Shown here: piece after piece, positions 10,041-31,889 of the stretch | Position numbering within the stretch: position 1 is the stretch's first letter | How the letters are laid out: each line of letters opens with the position of its first letter | Assembly (NCBI RefSeq): GCF_022919135.1 | Contig: NZ_CP095049.1 | Span: 6,023,001-6,087,000 of the forward strand | DNA: 64,000 nucleotides | Reading direction: 5' to 3' | DNA from: Hymenobacter cellulosivorans | GTDB lineage: Bacteria; Bacteroidota; Bacteroidia; Cytophagales; Hymenobacteraceae | Program-made: the position numbers and the translations under genes | Notes under the pieces: model-generated | Database searches by the model: none | What the model saw: the letters and a program-made list of their open reading frames with translations, nothing else | Told to the model about the DNA's origin: nothing

Positions 10041-11435
10041 TTAATTCAAATACTGGGTGATGTCGACGATGCGGCCTTCTACGGCCGTGATGGCGGCCAC
10101 GAGCGGGCTGGCCAGCAGGGTGCGGGCTCCCGGGCCCTGGCGGCCTTCGAAGTTGCGGTTAGAGGTCGAGACGCAGTAGGCGCCGGCCGGAATCTTGTCG
10201 TCGTTCATGGCCAGACAGGCCGAGCAGCCCGGTTCCCGCAGCTCAAAGCCGGCTTCGGCCAGCACCTGGTCGAGGCCTTCGGCAATGGCCTGCTTTTCAA
10301 CCAGCTTGGAGCCGGGCACGATGATGGCCTCCACGTGCCGGGCCTTGTGCTTGCCCTTCACGTAGGCTGCCACGGCCCTAAGGTCCTCGATGCGGGAGTT
10401 GGTGCAGCTACCGATAAAGACGTAATTGATTTCCTTGCCGAGCAACGATTCTCCCGGCGTGAAACCCATGTAAGCCAATGATTTGTCGAAACTGGCAGCT
10501 TCCCCATCGGTGCCGAGCACCGGAATCGAGCTGCTGAGCGCTATGCCCATACCGGGGTTGGTGCCGTAGGTTATCATCGGAGTAATGGCCTGCGCATCGA
10601 AGCTCAGCTCCGACTCAAACTCGGCACCTTCTTCCGAATACAGCGTCTGCCAGTACGCTACGGCCTGCTCCCACCGCTCACCCTGAGGGGCGTAGGGCCG
10701 GCCTTGGAGGTAGTCAAATGTGGTAGCATCGGGGGCAATGAGGCCGCCGCGGGCTCCCATTTCGATGCTCATGTTGCAGACCGTCATGCGGCCTTCCATG
10801 CTTAGGCTGCGAATGGCGCTGCCGGCGTACTCCACGAAGTAGCCGGTGGCCCCGCCCGTGCCGAGCTTCGAAATGATGTAGAGAATTATGTCCTTGGCCG
10901 TCACGCCGGGCCGCAGCTCGCCATCCACGGTGATGCGCATGCGCTTGGGCCGGCTGATAAGCAGGCACTGCGAGGCCATTACCTGCGCAACCTGGCTGGT
11001 GCCAATCCCGAAGGCAATGGCCCCGAAGGCGCCGTGGGTCGAGGTGTGGCTGTCGCCGCACACGATGGTCATGCCCGGCTGGGTCACGCCCAGCTCTGGT
11101 CCGATGACGTGCACAATGCCCTGGTACTGGTGGCCCAGCCCAAACAGCTCCACGCCGAACTTCGCGCAGTTTTCGGTGAGCTTATCCACCTGGGACCGGC
11201 TCAGCGGGTCCTGAATCGGCAGGTGCTGGTTGCGGGTCGGTACGTTGTGGTCGGCGGTGGCCAGAATCTGCTCCGGCCGGCTCAGCGGTAGGCCCCGTTC
11301 CTGCAGCTCATCGAAGGCCTGCGGGCTGGTGACTTCGTGAATCAGGTGCCGGTCGATGTAAAACACCTCCAGCCCGCCCGGAATGGTTTTCACCACGTGG
11401 GCATCCCAGATTTTATCGAATAAGGACTTGGCCAT
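10041..11435 (-). CDS. leuC: 3-isopropylmalate dehydratase large subunit
   Basis: Aconitase-family [4Fe-4S] subunit of isopropylmalate isomerase, 464 aa. Cluster-ligand cysteines are visible in [11 protein letters not shown] and [11 protein letters not shown]. The [20 protein letters not shown] segment and [17 protein letters not shown] are diagnostic of LeuC. It follows the small ORF by only 5 nt and precedes leuD. The operon order leuA-C-D-B is conventional. Confidence 0.97.
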
Positions 11436-18131: not shown

Positions 18132-19799
18132 TCAAGAATCGGTGATGCACCCTTCACTGGCTGAGCCCACGGTGCGGATGTATTTGCGCAGCACGCCCCG
18201 GGGCGCATTCACGGCGGGCGGCGTCCACTGGGCTCGGCGGGCGGCCAGTTCGGCCTCGTCCACCAGCACGCTCATCGTGTTGTTGGCCGCGTCGAGAACC
18301 ACCTGGTCGCCGTTGCGGACCATGGCAATGGGCCCGCCGTCGTAGGCTTCGGGGCTCACATGACCGATAACGAAGCCGTGGGTACCGCCCGAAAAGCGCC
18401 CGTCGGTGACCAGCGCCACTTTGTCGCCGAGCCCGGCCCCGATGATGGCCGAGGTGGGCTTGAGCATTTCAGGCATGCCCGGCCCGCCCTTGGGCCCCAC
18501 GTAGCGGATGATAACCACTTGCCCAGGCTGCACCTGGTTCAGGCCTTCGTTCAGCTCTTCCTCGGAGTCGAACACGCTGGCCGGGCCTTCGAACCGGGTA
18601 CCTTCCTTGCCGGTAATCTTGGCCACCGCGCCTTCGGGGGCGAGGTTGCCGTAGAGAATCTGAATGTGACCGTCGGCTTTAATTGGGTTAGCAAACGGCC
18701 GCAGCAAGTCCTGCTCTTCACCCAGGGCAGCGGTATTCGCCAGGTTTTCGGCCAGGGTCTTGCCCGTCACAGTGGGTAAATTGCCAGTCAGCAACCCTTC
18801 GTTAAGCAACGTCTTCATCACCGCCGGCACCCCGCCCAGGGCCGACAAATCCTCCATCAGGTACTTGCCACTGGGCTTGAGGTCGGCCAGCATGGGCACT
18901 CGGTTGCTCACGTTCTGGAAGTCCTGGAGCGTGAGCTTGACCCCGGCCGCATCGGCAATGGCCATCAGGTGAATGACGGCGTTGGTAGAGCCACCCAGTA
19001 CCGTAATGAGCACCATGGCATTTTCGAAGGCTTCCCGCACCATAATGTCGCGGGGCTTGAGGTCCTTTTCCAGCAGATTCAGCAGGTATTCGCCGGTCCG
19101 CAGGCACTCTTCGCGTTTCTGGTCACTCACGGCCGGAGCTGAGGACGAAAACGGCACCGACATACCCAGTACTTCGGCCGCCGAGGCCATAGTATTGGCC
19201 GTGTACATGCCCCCACAGGCCCCGGGGCCCGGGCAGGCGTGGTTGATAATACCGCGGTAGTCTTCCTCGGAAATGTTGTTTTGCAGCTTTTTGCCGTAAG
19301 CCTCGAAGCACGAAACAATGTTGAGCTGCTGGCCTTTGAAAGAACCGCCTTTAATCGTGCCGCCGTACACCATCAGCCCGGGCCGGTTGAGGCGGGCCAG
19401 AGCCATCAGGGAGCCGGGCATGTTTTTATCGCAGCCCACCACGCAAGCCAGGGCATCGTAGTTGTGCGCCCCGGCCATGGCCTCGATGGAGTCGGCAATG
19501 ATTTCTCTGGAAACCAGGGAGTAGCGCATGCCTGGCGTGCCGTTGGTAATACCGTCCGACACCCCGATGGTATTAAACCGTAACCCTACCAAACCCGCCG
19601 CCAGCACCCCTTCCTTCACATGGTCGGCTAGGCCGTTGAGGTGCATGTTGCAGGTGTTGCCATCGAAGCCCGTAGAGCAAATACCCACGAAGGGCTTGCG
19701 CAAATCGGCTTCCGACAAGCCCGAGCCAATGAGCATGGCTTGGGAGGCCGGGAGGCTGTCGTCCTGGGTGTAAATGCGGCTGTAGGTATTAAGGGCCAT
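18132..19799 (-). CDS. ilvD: Dihydroxy-acid dehydratase
   Basis: Fe-S dehydratase giving 2-oxoisovalerate and 2-oxo-3-methylvalerate. It is 555 aa, normal for bacterial IlvD. The cluster cysteines are visible in [11 protein letters not shown] and [16 protein letters not shown], with the early NTCNMHL motif. The Mg and substrate region [19 protein letters not shown] lies near the C terminus. It is the second gene of the ilv block, 89 nt from ilvE. Confidence 0.96.
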
Positions 19800-19888: not shown

Positions 19889-20791
19889 CTAAGATCTAAG
19901 CTCTAACTTCTCAGCTCCAACCTCCTGCCCGGTTACCAGAGCCTGGTAGCGGCTAGCCAGCTGGGCCCCAATGGTTTCGGCGTACGGCTTGGCAAATACT
20001 ACCTCATCAACCGACGAGACGCCGATAACCTCGGCTGCGGTGCCCGTCATAAAGGCGCCTTCGGCCTCTTGCAGTGCGGCCGGCGTGAAGAACTGCTCGT
20101 GCACGGTAATACCGGCTTCACGGGCCAGGTCGATGATGGTATTGCGGGTGATGCCGCGCAGGATGCTGCCGGCCGGAGCCGTGTACAGTTCCCCGTTTTT
20201 CTCGAAAAAGAAGTTGGCGCCGGGCCCTTCGGCCACGTAGCCGTTCATGTCCAGCAGTAGGGCTTCGTCGTAGCCCCGGCTCTTGGCTTCGGAGCTGGCA
20301 ATGATGGAGTTAACGTAGTGGCCTGAGACCTTGGCCTCAATCGGCACGGCCTTGGGGTTGGGCCGCTCGTAGGGCGAAATGGTAAGGCGCAGGCTTTGGT
20401 CGCCGAGGTACTTGCCCCACTCCCAGACGGCCATCAGCAGGTTGCCGGTCGTGGCGTGCTTGAGGCTCATATTGGGTGTGGCGGCGTAGGCCAGCGGCCG
20501 GATGTAGGCGTCGGTCAGCCCGTTTTTTTCCAGCAACTGGTAGCTGATCTGGGTCAGTTCCTCCACTGAGTAGTTCAGCGGCAGCCCGATAGCCTGGCAG
20601 GAGTAGTGAAACCGCTCGTAATGCTCCCGGGCCTTGAAGATCTGGCAGCCTTGGGGCGTGTTGTAGGCCCGAATGCCTTCGAAAACGGCGTATCCGTAGT
20701 GCAAAGACTGCGCATAAGCGCCGCAAGTGGCCTCCGAGGCCGGCACGAATTCACCATCCAGGAAGGCGACGGTGTTACTGTTGAAATACAT
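19889..20791 (-). CDS. ilvE: Branched-chain amino acid aminotransferase
   Basis: PLP fold-type IV transaminase, 300 aa, catalysing the last step of valine, leucine and isoleucine synthesis with glutamate as donor. Visible features are the LDGEFVPASEA start, GYAVFEGIRAY, the PLP-lysine region IEAKVSGHYVNSI and NGYVAEGPGANFFF. It is the first structural gene of the ilv operon. Its ATG lies 45 nt downstream of the T-tract of the attenuator, so expression of the whole operon should depend on readthrough there. Confidence 0.95.
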   Translation of the reverse strand: MYFNSNTVAFLDGEFVPASEATCGAYAQSLHYGYAVFEGIRAYNTPQGCQIFKAREHYERFHYSCQAIGLPLNYSVEELTQISYQLLEKNGLTDAYIRPLAYAATPNMSLKHATTGNLLMAVWEWGKYLGDQSLRLTISPYERPNPKAVPIEAKVSGHYVNSIIASSEAKSRGYDEALLLDMNGYVAEGPGANFFFEKNGELYTAPAGSILRGITRNTIIDLAREAGITVHEQFFTPAALQEAEGAFMTGTAAEVIGVSSVDEVVFAKPYAETIGAQLASRYQALVTGQEVGAEKLELRS

Positions 20792-20835: not shown

Positions 20836-20904
20836 AAAAAGCCTTCCTGAGCGCGGGGCTTAGAAAGGCTCGTTTGTGGCAAACAGCAGCAATTCCCTCA
20901 GCCC
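20836..20904 (-). promoter_or_regulatory. ilv transcription attenuator: terminator hairpin plus competing antiterminator
   Basis: On the minus strand, agcctttct (20870-20862) pairs with aggaaggct (20848-20840), nine pairs with one G-U, and is followed by a T-run at 20840-20836: an intrinsic terminator just before ilvE. The alternative strand gggctgaggga (20904-20894), which includes the leader-peptide stop codon, can pair with tttctaagccc (20866-20856), overlapping the 5' arm of the terminator. A ribosome finishing the leader would cover the first element and let the terminator form. A ribosome stalled on Val/Leu/Ile codons would free it for antitermination. The pairing was done by hand, without energy calculation. 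Confidence 0.75.
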
Positions 20905-20954
20905 AGCGGCGGCGGAATAATGACCTTTGTGACGAGCAGCACGGTGAAGAGCAT
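20898..20954 (-). CDS. ilv operon leader peptide (attenuation)
   Basis: An 18-codon frame, ATG at 20954 and TGA at 20898-20900, encodes MLFTVLLVTKVIIPPPLG. Nine of 18 residues are Leu, Val or Ile, with VLLV and VII clustered. The three prolines after the BCAA run may slow ribosomes further. It ends 28 nt before the terminator stem and about 107 nt before ilvE. This matches the logic of ribosome-mediated attenuation known for ilv and leu operons of enterobacteria. No good Shine-Dalgarno sequence is visible, as usual for this phylum. Confidence 0.78.
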   Translation of the reverse strand: MLFTVLLVTKVIIPPPLG

Positions 20955-30173: not shown

Positions 30174-31889
30174 ATGTCATTACCCATCTCCCGCCGCGCC
30201 TACGCCGATATGTACGGCCCCACCACCGGCGACAAAGTCCGCCTGGGCGATACTGACCTGCTAATCCAGGTCGAACGAGACTACACCGTGTACGGGGAGG
30301 AATGCAAGTTCGGGGGCGGCAAGGTCTTGCGCGACGGGATGGGTCAGGCCGCCGGCATCAGCCAGGACGAGGCCCTGGATTTGGTCATTACCAACGCCCT
30401 GGTGCTCGACTACACCGGCATCTACAAGGCTGACATCGGCATCAAGAACGGGCGAATCAGCGGCATCGGCAAGGCCGGCAACCCCCACATTATGCCCGGC
30501 GTGACGCCCGGCATGACCGTGGGCGTGACCACCGAAGTCATTGCCGGAGAAGGCCAGATTCTCACCGCCGGCGGCATCGACTGCCACATTCACTTCATCA
30601 GCCCCCAGCAGATTCCTGAAGCCCTGGCCTCGGGCCTGACCACGATGATAGGCGGCGGCACGGGTCCGGCGGCTGGCACCACGGCCACCACCTGCACGCC
30701 CGGCGCCTTTTACCTGGAAACAATGCTCAAGGCCACCGAGGCCTACCCGCTCAACTTCGGCTTTCTGGGCAAGGGCAACACGTCCAAGCCCGAGGGGTTG
30801 CGGGAACAAGTCGAGGCCGGGGCGTTGGGCTTTAAGCTGCACGAAGACTGGGGCACCACGCCCGCGGCCATCGACCAGTGCCTGACCATCGCCGAGGAAT
30901 ACGACGTGCAGGTCTGCATTCATACCGACACGCTCAACGAAAGCGGCTTCGTGGAAACCTCCACGGCGGCGTTTAAGGGCCGCACCATTCACTCCTACCA
31001 CACTGAAGGCGCCGGCGGCGGCCACGCTCCCGACATCATCAAAATCTGCGGAGAGCCCAACGTTATTCCCTCCTCCACCAACCCCACGCGGCCCTTCACG
31101 GTCAATACCATCGACGAGCACCTGGACATGCTCATGGTGTGCCACCACCTCGATAAGAACATTCCCGAGGACGTGGCCTTCGCCGAAAGCCGCATCCGGC
31201 AGGAAACCATTGCTGCCGAGGACATCCTGCACGATATGGGCGCACTGAGCATTATTTCTTCCGACTCCCAGGCCATGGGTCGGGTCGGCGAAGTCATTAC
31301 CCGCACCTGGCAAACGGCCCACAAGATGAAGCAGCAGCGCGGCCTGCTGCCCGAAGACGCGGCTGGTACTGCCGACAACTTCCGGGCCCGGCGCTACGTG
31401 GCCAAGTACACCATCAATCCCGCCCGGGCCCACGGCATTGCCCACGAAGTTGGTTCCGTAGAACAGGGCAAGCTGGCTGATTTGGTGCTCTGGAAGCCGC
31501 AGTTTTTTGGGGCCCGGGCCGAAATGATTCTCAAGGGCGGCATCATCGTGCAAAGCCAGATGGGCGACGCCAACGCCTCCATTCCCACGCCCCAGCCCTC
31601 GTTTTCCCGGCCCATGTTTGGCTCCCTGGGCACGGCCATCGGCAAGGCGTCGATGGTGTTTGTGTCCCAGGCGTCGGTAGAAAAAGTGCAAAGCACCTAC
31701 GGCCTGCAAAAGCAAGTGGTGGCGGTGAAAAACTGCCGCAGCATTGGCAAGAAGGACATGGCCCTGAATGACTACCTGCCCAACATCGAAGTGGACCCTG
31801 AAACCTACCGCGTAACGGTGGACGGGGTGCACCTGACCTGCGAGCCAGCCACGAAATTGCCCCTGGCGCAGCTCTACAGCCTGTTTTAG
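30174..31889 (+). CDS. ureC: Urease alpha (catalytic) subunit
   Basis: Hydrolyses urea to ammonia and carbamate at a di-nickel centre. It is 571 aa, full length. Visible are the metal motif [11 protein letters not shown], the carbamylated lysine K221 in [12 protein letters not shown], the [12 protein letters not shown] ligand stretch and [16 protein letters not shown]. The mobile flap is [22 protein letters not shown]. All key residues appear intact. Upstream partners are UreAB; downstream come ureF and ureG after an inverted repeat. Confidence 0.97.

What the first reader, a model, noticed from the sequence alone, without database searches (positions are those of the whole stretch)
20836..20954. 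Ribosome-mediated attenuator with an 18-residue Val/Leu/Ile leader peptide upstream of ilvE
Seen: on the minus strand an 18-codon frame (MLFTVLLVTKVIIPPPLG; 9 of 18 residues branched-chain) ends 28 nt before a terminator hairpin (9 bp plus T-run), and ilvE starts 45 nt further on. The stretch 20904-20894, including the leader stop codon, can pair with 20866-20856, which overlaps the terminator 5' arm. Established: this is the logic of the enterobacterial ilv and leu attenuators, where stalling at rare-charged codons favours antitermination. Inference: the whole ilvE-D-B-N-C-A operon is controlled this way here. The PPP motif after the BCAA run could add a translation-speed input (EF-P dependence).
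Basis: partly seen in the sequence, partly recalled or inferred. Interest (0 to 1): 0.85.

Follow-up and report, generated by a model that had tools for sequence, protein, structure and literature searches.

The report
Branched-chain amino acid leader-peptide attenuator
Just before the genes that make isoleucine, valine and leucine, this Hymenobacter carries a tiny valine/isoleucine-rich reading frame and a terminator that together very probably act as a starvation-sensitive switch; the mechanism is a classic one, but many relatives in the Bacteroidota carry the same element, some of them twice in a row.

Summary
On the minus strand an 18-codon frame (20954-20898; 9 of 18 residues I/L/V) lies 27 nt before a 9-bp terminator (20870-20840, T-run to 20836), 44 nt upstream of ilvE, first gene of a ten-gene ilv-leu cluster. 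Alone it is not striking (fold z +1.25). Comparison makes it convincing. An automatic rule found such a unit upstream of ilvE or ilvD in 109 of 147 loci (0 of 147 shuffled, 14 of 147 reverse-strand regions). The terminator covaries, and the stop-codon region pairs with the terminator 5' arm better than shuffled in 114 of 138 units. A model hit occurs in 64 of 78 Hymenobacter genomes with IlvC and 0 of 42 without. Predicted folding switches between codons 12 and 13, where the Val/Ile run ends. Ribosome-mediated attenuation by branched-chain amino acids is therefore supported; the EF-P/PPP idea is not (PPP in 4 of 59 genus units). Beyond the finding, 30 of 147 loci carry two units in series; the window has one. 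No Rfam family matched. The kind is known (E. coli ilv/leu), and leader-peptide attenuation was already suspected in a flavobacterium. Expression could not be tested.

The parts
20898..20954 (-). leader peptide frame MLFTVLLVTKVIIPPPLG, stop TGA
   Evidence: conserved in relatives
20916..20924 (-). conserved regulatory codons Val11-Ile12-Ile13 (GTC ATT ATT)
   Evidence: alignment A2; I/L/V frequency peaks at codons -13 to -7 from the stop
20887..20908 (-). antiterminator 5' strand, overlaps the leader stop codon; core GGGCT 20904-20900
   Evidence: own duplex -17.6 kcal/mol, p 0.07 for this sequence
20853..20870 (-). antiterminator 3' strand, equal to terminator 5' arm plus part of the loop; core AGCCC 20860-20856
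20836..20870 (-). intrinsic terminator: 9-bp stem, 13-nt loop, T-run 20840-20836
   Evidence: covariation
19889..20791 (-). ilvE, branched-chain aminotransferase
   Evidence: TIGR01122 above cut-off
18132..19799 (-). ilvD, dihydroxy-acid dehydratase
   Evidence: TIGR00110
16375..18150 (-). ilvB, acetolactate synthase large subunit
   Evidence: TIGR00118
15681..16271 (-). ilvN, acetolactate synthase small subunit
   Evidence: TIGR00119
14380..15444 (-). ilvC, ketol-acid reductoisomerase
   Evidence: TIGR00465
13113..14387 (-). ilvA, threonine ammonia-lyase
   Evidence: TIGR02079
11602..12768 (-). leuA, 2-isopropylmalate synthase (same transcript: inference)
   Evidence: NF002086; no second attenuator unit found in the ilvA-leuA gap
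10041..11435 (-). leuC, 3-isopropylmalate dehydratase large subunit
   Evidence: TIGR00170
9280..9876 (-). leuD, 3-isopropylmalate dehydratase small subunit
   Evidence: TIGR00171
8171..9292 (-). leuB, 3-isopropylmalate dehydrogenase
   Evidence: TIGR00169

Best explanation
A ribosome-mediated transcription attenuator. RNA polymerase transcribes the leader while a ribosome translates the 18-codon peptide. With enough charged Val/Ile (and Leu) tRNA the ribosome reaches the stop codon and covers the antiterminator strand that overlaps it (20908-20887); the terminator 20870-20840 then forms and transcription stops before ilvE. If the ribosome waits at the Val/Ile codons (up to about codon 12), that strand is free, pairs with the terminator's 5' arm and loop, and the polymerase reads through into ilvE-D-B-N-C-A and probably leuA-C-D-B. 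Shown by computation: the frame, both alternative helices, their conservation, and the predicted switch point. Inferred: coupling of translation to transcription, translation of the leader, the identity of the sensed tRNAs, readthrough, and the extent of the operon.
For: (1) Unit finder on 147 upstream regions: 109 positive; 0 of 147 Markov-shuffled, 14 of 147 reverse-complement regions; six other amino-acid triples 0 to 6 of 147. (2) Terminator: 99.1% of cells paired in 51 genus sequences, 34 double-change cells against 5.5 shuffled. (3) Antiterminator: stop region x terminator 5' arm+loop better than dinucleotide shuffles (p<=0.05) in 48 of 59 Hymenobacter units and 66 of 79 others; own partner beats most swapped partners (mean rank 0.236 and 0.127, 0.5 expected). 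(4) Predicted terminator probability in the window is 0.98-0.99 with the A site at codons 13-19, and 0.49, 0.31, 0.03 at codons 12, 11, 10; across Hymenobacter units the MFE keeps the terminator in 93-100% from codon -6 to the stop and 17-41% at codons -13 to -7, where I/L/V codons are densest. (5) Model R1 hit in 64 of 78 IlvC-positive and 0 of 42 IlvC-negative Hymenobacter genomes at E<1e-15 (cross-table by eye). (6) The unit sits before ilvD where ilvE is absent (17 of 22 Hymenobacter loci). (7) Synonymous changes keep the peptide (GTG ATT ATA GTG ATT ATT in L082 against GTC ATT ATT).
Against: No expression data. For this one sequence the fold is not special (z +1.25) and its own antiterminator is p=0.07. 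In the window the predicted terminator probability rises again (0.44-0.88) for a ribosome at codons 2-9, so early Leu/Val codons would switch poorly. Outside Hymenobacter the equilibrium fold keeps the terminator in 85-94% of units with the ribosome at codons -16 to -7, so switching there must be kinetic. Close relative L004 shows no equilibrium switch. No promoter match of the Bacteroidota type or sigma-70 type was seen upstream of the leader in the window. 10 of 54 ilvE-led Hymenobacter loci have no recognisable leader.
Confidence: 0.88

Rival explanations
1. A fixed (unregulated or otherwise regulated) terminator upstream of ilvE; the peptide is incidental or only a spacer.
For: The terminator is kept where the leader is unrecognisable (L012, L024, L028). 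Equilibrium folds outside the genus favour the terminator wherever the ribosome is.
Against: A BCAA-rich frame close before the terminator (median gap 26 nt) in 109 of 147 loci against 0 of 147 shuffles; complementarity to the terminator 5' arm beyond shuffles in 114 of 138 units.
Confidence: 0.06
2. The leader acts through nascent-peptide arrest or slow polyproline translation (PPP, EF-P input) rather than tRNA charging.
For: PPP follows the Val/Ile run in the window and three close relatives (L005, L007, L008).
Against: PPP in 4 of 59 Hymenobacter and 1 of 79 other units; the stretch after the run is replaced by LPLP, QLP, CLA, TLA and others, and the same nucleotides border or belong to the antiterminator strand.
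Confidence: 0.03
3. Translational rather than transcriptional control: leader translation exposes or hides the start of the next gene.
For: Leader and ilvE share one short 5' region; not excluded by sequence.
Against: The hairpin ends in a T-run. In L093, L098, L101 and L107 the unit lies 883-896 nt upstream of ilvD; in L098 a 230-codon methyltransferase-like frame lies between (the other three not checked).
Confidence: 0.03

Closest known systems
Enterobacterial ilvL/ilvGMEDA and leuL/leuABCD attenuators (recalled)
   Same: Short leader peptide rich in the operon's own products, intrinsic terminator, alternative antiterminator, stop codon near the masked strand.
   Different: Compact (27 nt from stop to terminator; the antiterminator strand itself spans the stop codon); a separate 1:2 protector hairpin was not established; no Shine-Dalgarno sequence seen by eye before the ATG; no sequence homology tested or claimed.
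Actinobacterial ilvBNC leader-peptide attenuator (C. glutamicum; PMC11857589, PMC10272879: search listings with abstract starts only)
   Same: BCAA leader peptide upstream of an ilv operon with terminator.
   Different: Different phylum and gene order; no Rfam family reached threshold at ilvE in this window or in ten relative loci.
Leader-peptide attenuators suspected in Flavobacterium psychrophilum (PMC9723704; passages and section 19 read)
   Same: Bacteroidota; [quoted passage not shown]
   Different: The main text names pheA and hisG among conserved 5' elements and does not contain 'ilv'; its supplementary table could not be read here.
Tandem attenuators of Salmonella mgtCBR (PMC3641672; abstract and outline read)
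   Same: Two leader-ORF attenuators in series on one transcript, as in 30 loci here (not in the window).
   Different: There the two sense different signals (ATP, proline); here both are BCAA-rich.

Membership tests
Classical ribosome-mediated amino-acid attenuator (ilv/leu type) | Short ORF rich in codons for the operon's product | tested here: met
   9 of 18 I/L/V in the window; mean 47% over 138 units
Classical ribosome-mediated amino-acid attenuator (ilv/leu type) | Intrinsic terminator between leader and first structural gene | tested here: met
   Stem and T-run, covariation; termination itself not measured
Classical ribosome-mediated amino-acid attenuator (ilv/leu type) | Antiterminator exclusive with the terminator and masked by a ribosome at the stop codon | tested here: met
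   By computation only; the 5' strand spans the end of the stop codon in 89 of 138 units
Classical ribosome-mediated amino-acid attenuator (ilv/leu type) | 1:2 protector (pause) hairpin giving termination without translation | tested here: inconclusive
   With the A site at codon 2 the terminator has probability 0.88 in the window, 0.51-0.96 in L004, L005, L007, L008, but 0.00-0.14 in L009, L010, L017, L019, L082, L108 (11 units examined)
Classical ribosome-mediated amino-acid attenuator (ilv/leu type) | Transcription starts upstream of the leader | tested here: inconclusive
   No promoter match in the window; Bacteroidota-type match upstream of the first leader in 22 of 108 loci against 1.3 expected
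Classical ribosome-mediated amino-acid attenuator (ilv/leu type) | Readthrough rises on starvation for the cognate amino acid and needs leader translation | not testable with these tools
   needs experiment
T-box or other catalogued leader RNA (Rfam 15) | Match above the family's gathering score | tested here: not met
   No match near ilvE in the window nor in ten relative loci

The most novel reading that the evidence does not exclude
The window's unit is one member of an uncatalogued family of BCAA attenuators spread through the class of Hymenobacter (Bacteroidia, recalled) and found once outside it, in which the antiterminator strand usually spans the leader stop codon; and in about a dozen genus-level groups two complete BCAA units stand in series on one leader (30 of 147 loci), so the polymerase must pass two same-signal checkpoints. 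That would give lower basal expression and a steeper response than one unit, and would be the first tandem same-signal leader-peptide attenuators known to me. ilvE-led Hymenobacter, as here, show a single unit; four ilvD-led Hymenobacter loci have two.
Probability: 0.65. Interest if true: 0.65.

Novelty: new member of a known kind. Interest (0 to 1): 0.5.

Why it matters
If true, branched-chain amino acid synthesis in many Bacteroidota is controlled by ribosome-mediated attenuation, which needs tight coupling of translation to transcription in a phylum that mostly initiates translation without Shine-Dalgarno sequences (recalled). That coupling becomes directly testable with one reporter. The serial units offer a natural experiment on how two similar checkpoints shape a response. 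For annotation, 138 candidate leader-peptide units are proposed from the loci examined here.

Tried and rejected
Single-sequence folding and the simple terminator scan gave no support by themselves. EF-P/PPP input rejected for lack of conservation. My first unit finder had a loop error and found 29 of 147; corrected. Four chance-looking units (first units of L121, L136 and L141, and the one of L052) were dropped. The automatic finder missed leaders seen by eye (L014, L016, L032, L071, L075, L084), so its counts are lower bounds for those groups.

Scan upstream of ilvD elsewhere in the class: 28 loci. My first scan did not turn loci that lie on the minus strand and so looked at the wrong side of most of them; one search repeats it with orientation. 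Result: 12 of 28 have a unit. Seven lie about 1.1-1.4 kb upstream, before a close-by ilvE (L244, L248, L250, L253, L257, L266, L269; L250 has two in series and is not among the 30). Three lie 152-162 nt before ilvD with no ilvE near (L243, L251, L255). Two look like chance (L259, L270). 16 of 28 have none, among them 5 of the 12 with ilvE near. So the element is common but not general for ilv operons. Five loci with distant IlvE (L190-L194) gave none.

Weaker covariance-model hits elsewhere in this genome (23.7 bits and below) look like ordinary terminators; one was read (L238) and shows no BCAA leader. Papers: ten searches with words such as leader peptide, attenuation, Bacteroidetes, Bacteroidota, Cytophaga, Flavobacter, ilv, ilvE, tandem attenuators; in the listings and passages seen, none described a BCAA attenuator in Bacteroidota. 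Searches listed only 15 of 3,011 and 20 of 68 papers; subscription journals are mostly missing and supplements could not be read.

Full report
The feature. On the minus strand, ATG 20954-20952 opens an 18-codon frame, MLFTVLLVTKVIIPPPLG, that ends at TGA 20900-20898. After 27 nt comes AGCCTTTCT (20870-20862), a 13-nt loop, AGGAAGGCT (20848-20840) and Ts to 20836; ilvE begins at 20791. Downstream on the same strand lie ilvD, ilvB, ilvN, ilvC, ilvA, leuA, leuC, leuD and leuB, named by NCBIfam.

Taken alone it is weak. The region folds no better than shuffled sequence (z +1.25), the simple scan does not list the hairpin, and Rfam has nothing at this place. The reading therefore stands or falls with relatives.

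Relatives in the genus. The window lies in a 6.10-Mb single-contig genome of the genus Hymenobacter, judged from named close relatives. Of 120 genomes of the genus searched, 54 have a close IlvE (67% identity or more) and 78 have IlvC. Upstream of ilvE, 44 of the 54 show, by eye, a short frame with a V-I core, usually 18-19 codons, ending mostly 23-33 nt before a conserved terminator; 10 do not. Of 22 readable operons that begin with ilvD instead, 17 carry such a unit upstream of ilvD, in four of them 883-896 nt upstream; in the one of these that was checked a methyltransferase-like frame lies between (L098). In most of the ilvD-led group the terminator has changed on both sides (AGCCTTTCT/AGGAAGGCT to AACCTTCCT/AGGAAGGTT). 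In 51 aligned units the terminator is 99.1% paired with 34 double-change cells against 5.5 in shuffles. A covariance model of the element has one strong hit in this genome, at ilvE (80.7 bits; then 26.9 bits on the opposite strand of the same place, then 23.7). In the genus, hits at E<1e-15 occur in 64 of 78 genomes with IlvC and 0 of 42 without (compared by eye). The model was built from many of these loci, so the 64 is partly circular; the 0 of 42 is not. One genome without IlvC keeps a weaker match (43.9 bits), a decayed copy with no ilv gene seen in the next 3 kb (L232).

Relatives beyond the genus. In 392 genomes drawn from the phylum, 31 have a close IlvE (E<1e-120): 4 in this genus, 26 others in the same class and one, G185, of another class. 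More of the same family came and named records. Upstream regions of 147 loci were examined with one automatic rule: an ATG frame of 12 or more codons with at least 6 I/L/V in some 14-residue stretch, ending 9-46 nt before a scored terminator. It fired in 109 of 147: 38 of 54 ilvE-led and 17 of 22 ilvD-led Hymenobacter loci, and 54 of 71 others (0 of the 5 with distant IlvE; one of the 54, L052, looks like chance). Controls: 0 of 147 Markov-shuffled regions, 14 of 147 reverse-complement regions (several of them relatives of each other), and 0 to 6 of 147 for six other amino-acid triples. A separate scan upstream of ilvD in 28 other loci of the class found units in 12, of which two look like chance.

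The switch. In 138 units (59 Hymenobacter, 79 others, after dropping four chance-looking ones) the stretch around the leader stop codon was paired with the terminator's 5' arm plus loop. It paired better than dinucleotide shuffles at p<=0.05 in 48 of 59 and 66 of 79, and better than most swapped partners (mean rank 0.236 and 0.127 where 0.5 is expected). The terminators differ widely between lineages while the pairing is kept, for example GTTGAGAAAGGCTTA with AAGGTCTTTCTCAAA in L065. The window's own value is p=0.07. Inside the genus the core GGGCU:AGCCC is paired in 96.5% of cells with three compensatory cells; the longer pairing has no excess covariation. I then folded only the RNA that a ribosome leaves free, assuming that it covers 13 nt from the first base of the A-site codon (recalled footprint). 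For the window this gives a terminator probability of 0.98-0.99 with codon 13 or later in the A site, and 0.49, 0.31, 0.03 for codons 12, 11, 10; it is higher again (0.44-0.88) at codons 2-9. Of the ten other units examined, L004 shows no switch and L008 and L009 switch two or three codons earlier. Across Hymenobacter units the terminator is kept in 93-100% from codon -6 to the stop and in 17-41% from -13 to -7; I/L/V frequency over all units is 70-82% at -13 to -7 and 35% or less from -5. Outside the genus the equilibrium fold keeps the terminator in 85-94% at codons -16 to -7, so switching there would have to be kinetic; this counts against a purely thermodynamic account.

Tandem units. In 30 of the 147 loci two units stand in series (32 by the rule, less two chance-looking), the second ATG a median of 32 nt (7-178) after the first terminator; in 21 of 30 both units have an antiterminator at p<=0.05. 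They occur in Marixanthomonas spongiae (L050), Fluviicola, Flammeovirgaceae and Cyclobacteriaceae MAGs (L047, L053, L055), another MAG (L060), 13 of 15 loci of one other genus in the family of Hymenobacter, four ilvD-led Hymenobacter loci and eight loci of four further unnamed families. In L050 and L121 the two units are near copies; elsewhere they are much less alike. A Bacteroidota-type promoter match lies upstream of the first leader in 22 of 108 loci against 1.3 expected, in 16 of the 22 at 17-36 nt before the ATG. The window itself has one unit only.

Limits. The counts treat related genomes as separate; families were not weighted. The promoter of the window's leader was not found. No expression data exist here.

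Place among known systems. It works like the ilv and leu attenuators of enterobacteria (recalled) and meets the sequence-level criteria tested, except that the protector hairpin and the promoter remain unsettled. Leader-peptide attenuation in amino-acid operons was reported as strongly suggested in Flavobacterium psychrophilum (PMC9723704, section 19 read), and short ORFs reminiscent of leader peptides in Bacteroides thetaiotaomicron (PMC7366714, passages read). PMC4833913 (passages read) treats leader genes in Bacteroidetes statistically, with no ilv case in the main text. Tandem attenuators are known in Salmonella mgtCBR, for two different signals (PMC3641672, abstract and outline read). I found no description of this BCAA family or of tandem BCAA units in the ten paper searches listed under Tried and rejected.

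Noticed in passing
L240 (own genome, upstream of trpE, G000:C1 near 3456900): A frame MTFHVTQQAWWWPLRNSGRENLCVR with three Trp in a row is followed by a strong hairpin with T-run before trpE: a probable trp attenuator in the same genome.
   Followed up: partly
L239 (own genome, upstream of hisG, G000:C1 near 4248400): A frame ending AAHHHLHGHHSS (6 His in the last 10 residues) lies upstream of hisG; no clear T-run terminator follows.
   Followed up: partly
30 of 147 loci, e.g. L050, L121, L132, L133, L159, L177, L110: Two complete BCAA leader+terminator units in series upstream of ilvE or ilvD; L250 is a further case.
   Followed up: yes
L232 (G010:C1:1538484-1538566): A genome without an IlvC match keeps a decayed copy of the attenuator with no ilv gene seen behind it.
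   Followed up: partly
120 Hymenobacter genomes: 42 of 120 have no IlvC match, suggesting that about a third of the genus cannot make branched-chain amino acids.
   Followed up: no
L028/L117 (G032): A genome keeps ilvE and the terminator but has no IlvC match and no recognisable leader.
   Followed up: no
G060 and G061 (L089, L090): The attenuator unit is present although the IlvE match carries internal stops or is split in both genomes.
   Followed up: no
L098 5367-6059 (-): A 230-codon methyltransferase-like frame lies between the attenuator and ilvD; similar spacing in L093, L101 and L107.
   Followed up: partly
window 30326-30621 (-): Rfam 5_ureB_sRNA match, 137 bits, lies antisense inside a 571-codon frame 30174-31889 (+) that looks like urease alpha subunit (recalled); probably conserved coding sequence rather than an antisense RNA.
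   Followed up: partly
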